54,351 nt of DNA from Acidobacteriota bacterium (GTDB lineage Bacteria; Acidobacteriota; Blastocatellia; Pyrinomonadales; Pyrinomonadaceae): positions 1 to 54,351 of the forward strand of contig QHXI01000071.1 of assembly GCA_003222895.1 (NCBI GenBank). The letters run 5' to 3'. The notes beneath the pieces were generated by a model. The model ran no database searches. It was given only the letters and a program-made list of their open reading frames with translations, and was not told where the DNA came from. A program made the position numbers and the translations under genes. Positions 40,831 to 41,436 of the stretch are shown one piece after another; positions within the stretch are counted from its first letter, which is position 1; every line of letters begins with the position of its first letter.

Positions 40831-41436
40831 ATGATCAAGCGAGCCCTCTGCGTCGTCTTTTTATTTGCGGCTGCATCGATTGCCGCCGCGCAACCTGCGC
40901 CAACGCAAACGCCTTCGCCGCAAAAGCCGGCCACCCCGCCAGCGCCGCATACAAGTTTGAAGGTCGGTCAGGCTGCGCCGGACTTTACTCTGCCCAGTTC
41001 CATCAGCGGACCCGACGGCCGGAAAGTGCGATACAAACTGAGCGACTTCAAGGGTAAGAAGAACGTAGTGCTCGCTTTCTACGTCTTTGCTTTCACCGGT
41101 GGTTGAACGAAAGAAATGAAGGCGTATCAGGCTGATATCGCCAAATTCGAAGGCAACGACACACAGGTTTTCGGCGTCAGCATCGACAGTCCTTATGCCA
41201 ACGCTGAGTTCGCTAAACAGATCGGCGTCACCTTCCCGCTGCTAAGCGACATCAAGCACACGGTGGTCAAGGACTACGGCACCTTCAACGAAGACGGCGG
41301 TTATGGAAATCGCGCGACGTTCGTGATCGACAAGGACGGGATCATTCAGCATATCGACGAAGGCAACATAGCCATCGACATCACGGGCGCAGCCGATACA
41401 TGCAACATCTTGTCGCACAAGAAAGCCACGCAGTAG
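40831..41436 (+). CDS. Exported peroxiredoxin-like selenoprotein (in-frame TGA as Sec92)
   Basis: Read through a TGA at 41104-41106, the frame runs unbroken to the TAG at 41434 and gives a 201-residue thiol/selenol peroxidase-like protein. A signal peptide (residues 1-20) precedes a Pro-rich linker and a peroxiredoxin fold ([29 protein letters not shown]). The TGA falls at the peroxidatic position in FAFTGG-U-TKE, matching the TxxC motif. Downstream sequence stays conserved ([40 protein letters not shown]), showing that the second half is still coding. Cys191 is the only Cys in the mature protein and could resolve. Other genes here use TGA to stop, so a code change is ruled out. Sec machinery is not in the window. 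Confidence 0.85.
41121..41142 (+). promoter_or_regulatory. SECIS-like hairpin downstream of the TGA
   Basis: A 9-bp stem with one bulged U pairs GGCGTATCA with TGATATCGCC around a GGC loop. The loop starts 23 bases after the TGA. Bacterial SECIS elements have an apical loop with a G in the first positions and a comparable spacing, and a bulged U. Fits the pattern but is not proof. Confidence 0.6.

What the first reader, a model, noticed from the sequence alone, without database searches (positions are those of the whole stretch)
40831..41436. Exported peroxiredoxin with TGA at the peroxidatic position: likely new selenoprotein
Reading through the TGA at 41104 gives one uninterrupted peroxiredoxin-like protein of 201 residues with a signal peptide. 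The TGA sits exactly where the peroxidatic Cys belongs (TGG-U-TKE in the TxxC motif), the sequence after it is conserved and coding, and the gene has a strong ribosome-binding site. Other genes in the window use TGA as stop. A secreted selenol peroxidase in this bacterial group would be unusual. The motif's usual leading Pro is Val here.
Basis: partly seen in the sequence, partly recalled or inferred. Interest (0 to 1): 0.92.

Follow-up and report, generated by a model that had tools for sequence, protein, structure and literature searches.

The report
Exported selenocysteine peroxiredoxin of Acidobacteria
This gene's internal TGA is very probably read as selenocysteine, giving an exported peroxide-destroying enzyme that many related bacteria share and that standard gene finding would probably cut in two; it is a real but not revolutionary addition to a known class of selenium enzymes.

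Summary
Reading the TGA at 41104-41106 through gives one 201-residue AhpC/TSA peroxiredoxin with a signal-like N-terminus. The genome encodes SelA, SelB, a tRNA-Sec with anticodon UCA, and a SelD that itself has an in-frame TGA. The 46 best matches, in 45 of 297 genomes of the phylum, all contain a TGA; in the 40 whose codon I read it is at the peroxidatic position. The protein after the TGA is under purifying selection. A hairpin starting 14 nt after the UGA (loop GGC, -10 kcal/mol) meets the published bacterial SECIS rules; 32 of 44 family members fold with the same apical loop. selA is found in 42 of the 45 genomes against 149 of the other 252.

I infer a Sec92-Cys191 selenenylsulfide cycle. 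Sec peroxiredoxins (TxxU) are an established family, so this is a new exported subfamily, not covered by the NCBIfam models scanned, of a known kind. Within its phylum it is not rare.

The parts
40831..41436 (+). Sec-containing exported peroxiredoxin gene, 201 residues with TGA read as selenocysteine
   Evidence: relatives with the same TGA
40820..40824 (+). AGGAG ribosome-binding site
   Evidence: sequence
40831..40890 (+). N-terminal signal-peptide-like segment (MIKR, hydrophobic core, AAA before Q21)
   Evidence: hydrophobic 12-residue window 2.77; 43 of 44 members reach 1.8, the other has 1.79; no signal-peptide predictor was available
41104..41106 (+). in-frame TGA, Sec92, peroxidatic position
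41121..41142 (+). SECIS-like hairpin, 9 bp with one bulged U, loop GGC at 41130-41132, 23 nt between UGA and loop
   Evidence: criteria from passages of PMC13188914
41311..41313 (+). Arg161 codon, candidate active-site Arg
   Evidence: 44 of 44
41401..41403 (+). Cys191 codon, putative resolving Cys in the last helix
   Evidence: 44 of 44; helix 185-200 in the model

Best explanation
The gene encodes an exported (periplasmic) peroxiredoxin whose peroxidatic residue is selenocysteine, inserted at UGA 41104 by SelB and tRNA-Sec with the help of the hairpin at 41121-41142. After export, the Sec92 selenolate, held by Thr89 and Arg161, reduces hydrogen peroxide or organic peroxides; the selenenic acid is then resolved by Cys191 in the last helix to a selenenylsulfide, which a periplasmic thioredoxin-like protein fed by a DsbD-type reductase returns to the selenol. 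Shown by computation: the frame, the conserved UGA, the machinery, the hairpin, purifying selection, the invariance of Cys191. Inferred: actual Sec insertion, export, peroxidase activity, the Sec92-Cys191 bond and the reductant.
For: AhpC-TSA domain spans the TGA. Complete Sec machinery in the same genome: selB 365.6 bits (cut-off 242.25), selA 540.7 (267.9), selD 357.5 (125) with an in-frame TGA (U28), tRNA-Sec 67 bits (gathering 47), called tRNA-SeC with anticodon tca by ARAGORN. The 46 best-scoring matches among 297 genomes all carry a TGA; in the 40 read at codon level, and in 6 of 6 named Acidobacteria or Blastocatellia loci (one, L057, identical to L025 of the 40), it is the codon aligned to residue 92. 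Thr89, Arg161 and Cys191 are each 44 of 44. Hairpin stem paired in 294 of 396 cells against 207.6 (sd 6.4, max 229) in 1000 synonymous reshuffles; 26 of 44 members have at least 7 of 9 pairs (null mean 5.0, max 11), with changes on both sides that keep pairs (T-A to C-G; G-C to A-T or C-G; C-G to G-T); 32 of 44 minimum-energy folds have the same 3-nt apical loop, GGC 22 and GTC 10. Mean folding z of the 48 nt after the UGA -1.64 (n 44) against -0.35 for 77 Cys homologues and -0.51 to +0.07 for six shifted windows. dN/dS after the TGA 0.03 to 0.15, similar to before it. selA in 42 of 45 against 149 of 252 genomes, Fisher p 2.5e-6. One DsbD-type membrane domain in the genome, 58.8 bits. Nearest solved relatives AhpE by sequence, Bcp4 and AhpE by fold.
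Against: No protein-level or selenium data. 18 of 44 members do not keep seven of the nine pairs in that register; seven of these still have the same apical hairpin, eleven fold otherwise, and one member that keeps the pairs (L029) has another minimum-energy fold; the other folds were not tested as SECIS. Three TGA-bearing genomes lack a selA match (G140, G226, G266; completeness 91, 77, 72). The z of the window's own hairpin against synonymous reshuffles is only -0.82, 20% of them folding as well, though -2.48 against dinucleotide shuffles. Relatives are not independent samples, so the p values and null comparisons overstate. The usual Pro of the PxxxTxxC motif is Val. Cys191's role and the reductant are inference; no interatomic distance could be measured, and the model is less sure there (pLDDT 76 for residues 191-200).
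Confidence: 0.9

Rival explanations
1. The TGA is a genuine stop: a pseudogene, or two adjacent genes (40831-41106 and 41116-41436).
For: By table 11 the frame does stop there, and an ATG follows at 41116.
Against: TGA at the same aligned codon in the 40 relatives read and 6 of 6 named loci, one Pfam domain across it, dN/dS 0.03-0.15 after it, and a first half that would lack the catalytic residue.
Confidence: 0.02
2. Sequencing or assembly error that turned a Cys codon into TGA.
For: Cys homologues have TGT or TGC here.
Against: The same TGA in many separate assemblies, named and unnamed.
Confidence: 0.005
3. TGA is read as another residue (Trp, Cys) by reassignment or a near-cognate tRNA rather than as Sec.
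For: Readthrough alone does not name the residue.
Against: 18 of 35 long ORFs in the window end with TGA; tRNA-Sec, SelA, SelB, SelD present; the residue aligns with the peroxidatic Cys.
Confidence: 0.02
4. It is a Sec peroxidase, but of the one-residue kind like AhpE: an external thiol resolves the selenenic acid, and Cys191 has a structural or other role.
For: Closest solved relative by sequence is AhpE, called a 1-Cys peroxiredoxin by its depositors.
Against: Cys191 is 44 of 44 while only Ala181 of its neighbourhood reaches 90% conservation; none of the 84 non-family sequences has a Cys 92-107 residues after the active residue (a limited control: most are cyanobacterial).
Confidence: 0.2

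Closest known systems
Bacterial Sec peroxiredoxin, TxxU (PF00578; Eubacterium acidaminophilum enzyme, Sohling et al. 2001, seen only as cited in PMC13188914)
   Same: AhpC/TSA family, Thr-x-x-Sec active site, UGA plus bacterial SECIS
   Different: NCBIfam PrxU model (NF040737) scores 81.2 bits against a cut-off of 270; here an N-terminal signal-like segment, Val for the motif Pro, and an invariant Cys191. Whether other published Sec peroxiredoxins share these traits was not tested
AhpE (Mycobacterium tuberculosis Rv2238c), 1-Cys peroxiredoxin
   Same: best sequence match and among the best fold matches (Foldseek ranks Bcp4 first, AhpE second); AFTGxC active site; 36% identity
   Different: Cys where this protein has Sec (alignment); described as 1-Cys, so without a second redox residue
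Peroxiredoxins with the resolving Cys in the last helix (human PRDX5 type; recalled, not from a call)
   Same: a second Cys about 99 residues after the active residue, in the last helix of the model
   Different: sequence kinship to that subfamily was not tested; the first residue is Sec here
Second, cytoplasmic-looking Sec peroxiredoxin of the same genome (L132, AWTPVU)
   Same: TGA at the aligned position, same fold family
   Different: no N-terminal extension and no Cys191 counterpart

Membership tests
Bacterial selenoprotein | in-frame UGA conserved in relatives and aligned to Cys in homologues | tested here: met
   46 of 46 best rows carry a TGA, 40 of 40 read at the aligned codon; 77 other loci have TGT or TGC there
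Bacterial selenoprotein | SelA, SelB, SelD and tRNA-Sec in the genome | tested here: met
[quoted passage not shown]
   loop GGC, 9 bp with one bulge, 23 nt, -10 kcal/mol; relatives
Bacterial selenoprotein | selenium in the protein | not testable with these tools
   needs 75Se or mass spectrometry
Peroxiredoxin (AhpC/TSA) | domain profile over cut-off | tested here: met
   PF00578 126.1 bits, cut-off 26
Peroxiredoxin (AhpC/TSA) | PxxxT/SxxC(U) motif and active-site Arg | tested here: inconclusive
   Thr89 and Arg161 44 of 44; the motif Pro is kept in only 6 of 44
Peroxiredoxin (AhpC/TSA) | peroxidase activity | not testable with these tools
   needs an enzyme assay
PrxU equivalog (NF040737) | score over curated cut-off | tested here: not met
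   81.2 bits against 270
Exported protein | N-terminal signal peptide | tested here: inconclusive
   hydrophobic segment in 43 of 44 members at a threshold of 1.8; no signal predictor run
Peroxiredoxin with resolving Cys in the last helix (PRDX5 type) | Cys in the last helix that bonds the peroxidatic residue | tested here: inconclusive
   Cys191 in helix 185-200; the bond is not testable here

The most novel reading that the evidence does not exclude
A separate, Acidobacteriota-centred subfamily of periplasmic selenoperoxidases that exists only in the Sec form (no Cys member among the 46 best rows of 297 genomes) with a dedicated Sec92-Cys191 selenenylsulfide cycle, so that these bacteria keep the costly Sec machinery partly for peroxide defence of the cell envelope.
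Probability: 0.5. Interest if true: 0.62.

Novelty: new member of a known kind. Interest (0 to 1): 0.48.

Why it matters
The surveys whose passages I read single out Deltaproteobacteria, Clostridia and Synergistetes as selenoprotein-rich (PMC5029168) and give Acidobacteria 3 families and 4 selenoproteins in 2006 (PMC1794560). Here selA is found in 191 of 297 genomes of the phylum and an exported Sec peroxidase in 45. Ordinary annotation would probably split it at the TGA, since no NCBIfam model covers it (the annotation itself was not looked up). If true it gives selenium a testable envelope function in this phylum, and the relatives offer a covarying SECIS set.

Tried and rejected
Considered and rejected: pseudogene or split gene, base error, reading of TGA as another residue (see rivals). 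PrxU membership was rejected on the NCBIfam cut-off. Gene neighbours gave no partner: the upstream AAA-domain gene was found beside the gene in five near relatives and the downstream small lipoprotein-like gene in three, but most loci held only 1.5 kb of flank, so this is a partial look; no operon-based reductant is proposed. Rfam found nothing in the window at gathering scores. No paper in the library holds both 'selenocysteine' and 'Blastocatellia'. The eleven family members with other folds after the UGA were not modelled. Other phyla were not surveyed for Sec members: the GTDB contig scan kept the best 80 of 130 relatives, 6 Acidobacteria or Blastocatellia loci with TGA and 74 with Cys codons, but its peptide pattern over the active site was back-translated with Cys, so TGA members elsewhere could be missed.

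The fold match was said to be best to AhpE; Bcp4 ranks first. The count of members with the same apical loop was added from a new script.

Full report
What is there. From ATG 40831 to TAG 41434-41436 the window holds one reading frame with a single internal stop, TGA at 41104-41106; read through, it gives 201 residues. AGGAG lies 6 nt before the ATG. The AhpC-TSA profile covers residues 45-175 at 9.8e-37, so the domain runs across the TGA. The residue at the TGA aligns with the peroxidatic Cys of AhpE (AFTGG-U against AFTGI-C). Of 35 long ORFs picked mechanically in the window, 18 end in TGA, so the codon is an ordinary stop otherwise.

The machinery. The window's own genome (4.77 Mb in 167 contigs, 96.4% complete) has one SelA (540.7 bits), one SelB over cut-off (365.6 bits; seven weaker places are below it), SelD (357.5 bits) and a tRNA-Sec with 67 bits that ARAGORN also calls tRNA-SeC, anticodon tca. 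The other place over the Rfam score (51.6 bits) is a tRNA-Ser by ARAGORN. SelD carries its own in-frame TGA, residue 28 of the stretch translated, in CSG-U-AAKL. A second peroxiredoxin with TGA at the same aligned position, without a signal-like segment, lies on contig C82 (L132).

The relatives. In 297 genomes of that phylum 209 have a match at 1e-15. The 46 best rows (45 genomes, down to 5.4e-32) all contain a TGA; the first row without one follows at 8.0e-32 with 48% identity over 135 residues, and further TGA rows come after it. I read the codon in 40 of those 46 rows; in 40 of 40 it is the TGA aligned to residue 92. The other six are known only by their stop count. Six named loci have TGA there too (one identical to a locus among the 40), while the other 74 of the 80 loci kept from that scan, mostly cyanobacterial, have TGT (49) or TGC (25). 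In all I read 130 loci: 53 TGA, 77 Cys codons.

For the family alignment I kept the 47 TGA loci with the AFT motif and dropped L146 by hand (more distant, different C-terminus) and two duplicates (L057, L140), leaving 44; the six other TGA loci are of the xWTxVU type. Because TGA was part of that selection, 44 of 44 at residue 92 is not evidence; the unselected evidence is the ranking.

Conserved features not used for selection: Arg161, Tyr149, Gly150 and Cys191, each 44 of 44; Pro85 of the textbook motif in only 6 of 44, Val in 36. Among the 84 non-family sequences none has a Cys 92-107 residues after the active residue; most are cyanobacterial, and L146, dropped by hand, is among them, so this is a limited control. 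The predicted model (mean pLDDT 83.4; ten-residue blocks from 41 to 190 at 88 or more) puts Cys191 in helix 185-200, the last one; the block 191-200 has pLDDT 76. By Foldseek the nearest solved folds are Bcp4 and then AhpE. An N-terminal hydrophobic segment is present in 43 of 44 members at a window value of 1.8, the other having 1.79; no signal-peptide predictor was on hand.

Recoding signal. The RNA after the UGA folds into a 9-bp hairpin with one bulged U and loop GGC, 23 nt between UGA and loop, -10 kcal/mol, z -2.48 against dinucleotide shuffles, 5 of 200 folding as well. It meets the four criteria quoted in the passages of PMC13188914 that I saw. Across 44 members the nine pairs hold in 294 of 396 cells against 207.6 (sd 6.4, maximum 229) in 1000 synonymous reshuffles; 26 of 44 keep at least seven pairs against a null mean of 5.0 and maximum of 11. 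Among those 26 (chosen for pairing, so the counts lean that way) pairs change on both sides at 20/28 (T-A 21, C-G 5), 17/32 (G-C 18, A-T 2, C-G 2, unpaired 4) and 16/33 (C-G 22, G-T 3, unpaired 1); 18/30 is unpaired in 3 and 14/35 in 4. The minimum-energy fold has the same 3-nt loop in 32 of 44, GGC 22 and GTC 10. The mean z against synonymous reshuffles is -1.64 for the family, -0.35 for 77 Cys homologues, and -0.51 to +0.07 for windows shifted by 60-150 nt. Against this: the window's own z by that null is only -0.82, and twelve members have another minimum-energy fold, which I did not test as SECIS.

Selection. Against L052, L053, L023 and L055, dN/dS after the TGA is 0.03, 0.15, 0.13 and 0.10, and before it 0.05, 0.14, 0.10 and 0.19; against L054 it is 0.05 before and not computable after, synonymous sites being saturated. 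So both parts are under similar coding constraint; synonymous distances are near or over 1, so the ratios are rough. selA is found in 42 of the 45 genomes with a family member and in 149 of the other 252 (Fisher p 2.5e-6); the three exceptions are 91, 77 and 72% complete in fragmented assemblies. Shared ancestry makes the p value optimistic.

Mechanism. Shown: conserved recoding architecture and conserved active-site residues. Inferred from the peroxiredoxin family: the Sec92 selenolate attacks peroxide, Cys191 resolves the selenenic acid, and a periplasmic thiol system recycles the enzyme. A DsbD-type membrane domain exists in the genome (58.8 bits), but nothing links it to this protein.

Comparison with print. 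Peroxiredoxin TxxU stands among the experimentally verified prokaryotic selenoprotein families in two reviews (PMC13188914 and PMC9312934, passages), with 91 proteins in 78 organisms in 2016 (PMC5029168, passages). Acidobacteria had 3 families and 4 selenoproteins in 2006 (PMC1794560, passages), and the one acidobacterial test genome of a 2025 method paper had 3 known and no new selenoprotein genes (PMC12013277, passages). In the listings of searches and in those passages I saw no exported acidobacterial Sec peroxiredoxin; the library covers open-licence PMC papers only, supplements were not read, and the Haft and Tolstoy 2025 paper is not held. No NCBIfam model reaches its cut-off on this protein, its 94% relative (L052), a 62% relative (L057) or L132. 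Hence: a new member, arguably a distinct subfamily, of a known kind.

Noticed in passing
L132:255-719 (genome contig C82:54254-54718, minus): Second peroxiredoxin of the same genome with TGA at the peroxidatic position (AWTPVU), 154 residues, no signal segment and no C-terminal Cys; five other loci of this type read in other genomes.
   Followed up: partly
L018:1450-2450: SelD of this genome carries its own in-frame TGA (CSG-U-AAKL), so it is probably a selenoprotein too.
   Followed up: partly
G046:C15:37331-37810 and G046:C21:158058-158450: Two peroxiredoxin matches with a TGA inside in a genome listed as 100% complete that has no selA match at 1e-80; whether the TGA sits at the active site was not checked.
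   Followed up: no
window 41455-41553: Palindromic CCCTCTCCC/GGGAGAGGG element with 22-nt inverted arms just after the gene; looks like a dispersed intergenic repeat, but only one copy is in the window.
   Followed up: partly
window 36225-39788 and 39840-40676, minus strand: Two neighbouring AAA-ATPase genes, about 31% alike over the shared part: a large AAA/TPR/BTAD regulator and a short gene with the AAA part only; both also beside the gene in L052 and L053.
   Followed up: no
window 41582-42013: Small lipoprotein-like gene (LFAFAAC) downstream on the same strand, no Pfam match, found beside the gene in L052, L053 and L054.
   Followed up: partly
window 43914-44297, minus strand: Small protein with a cystatin domain match (E 1.5e-7); I recall cystatins as uncommon in bacteria, not checked.
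   Followed up: no
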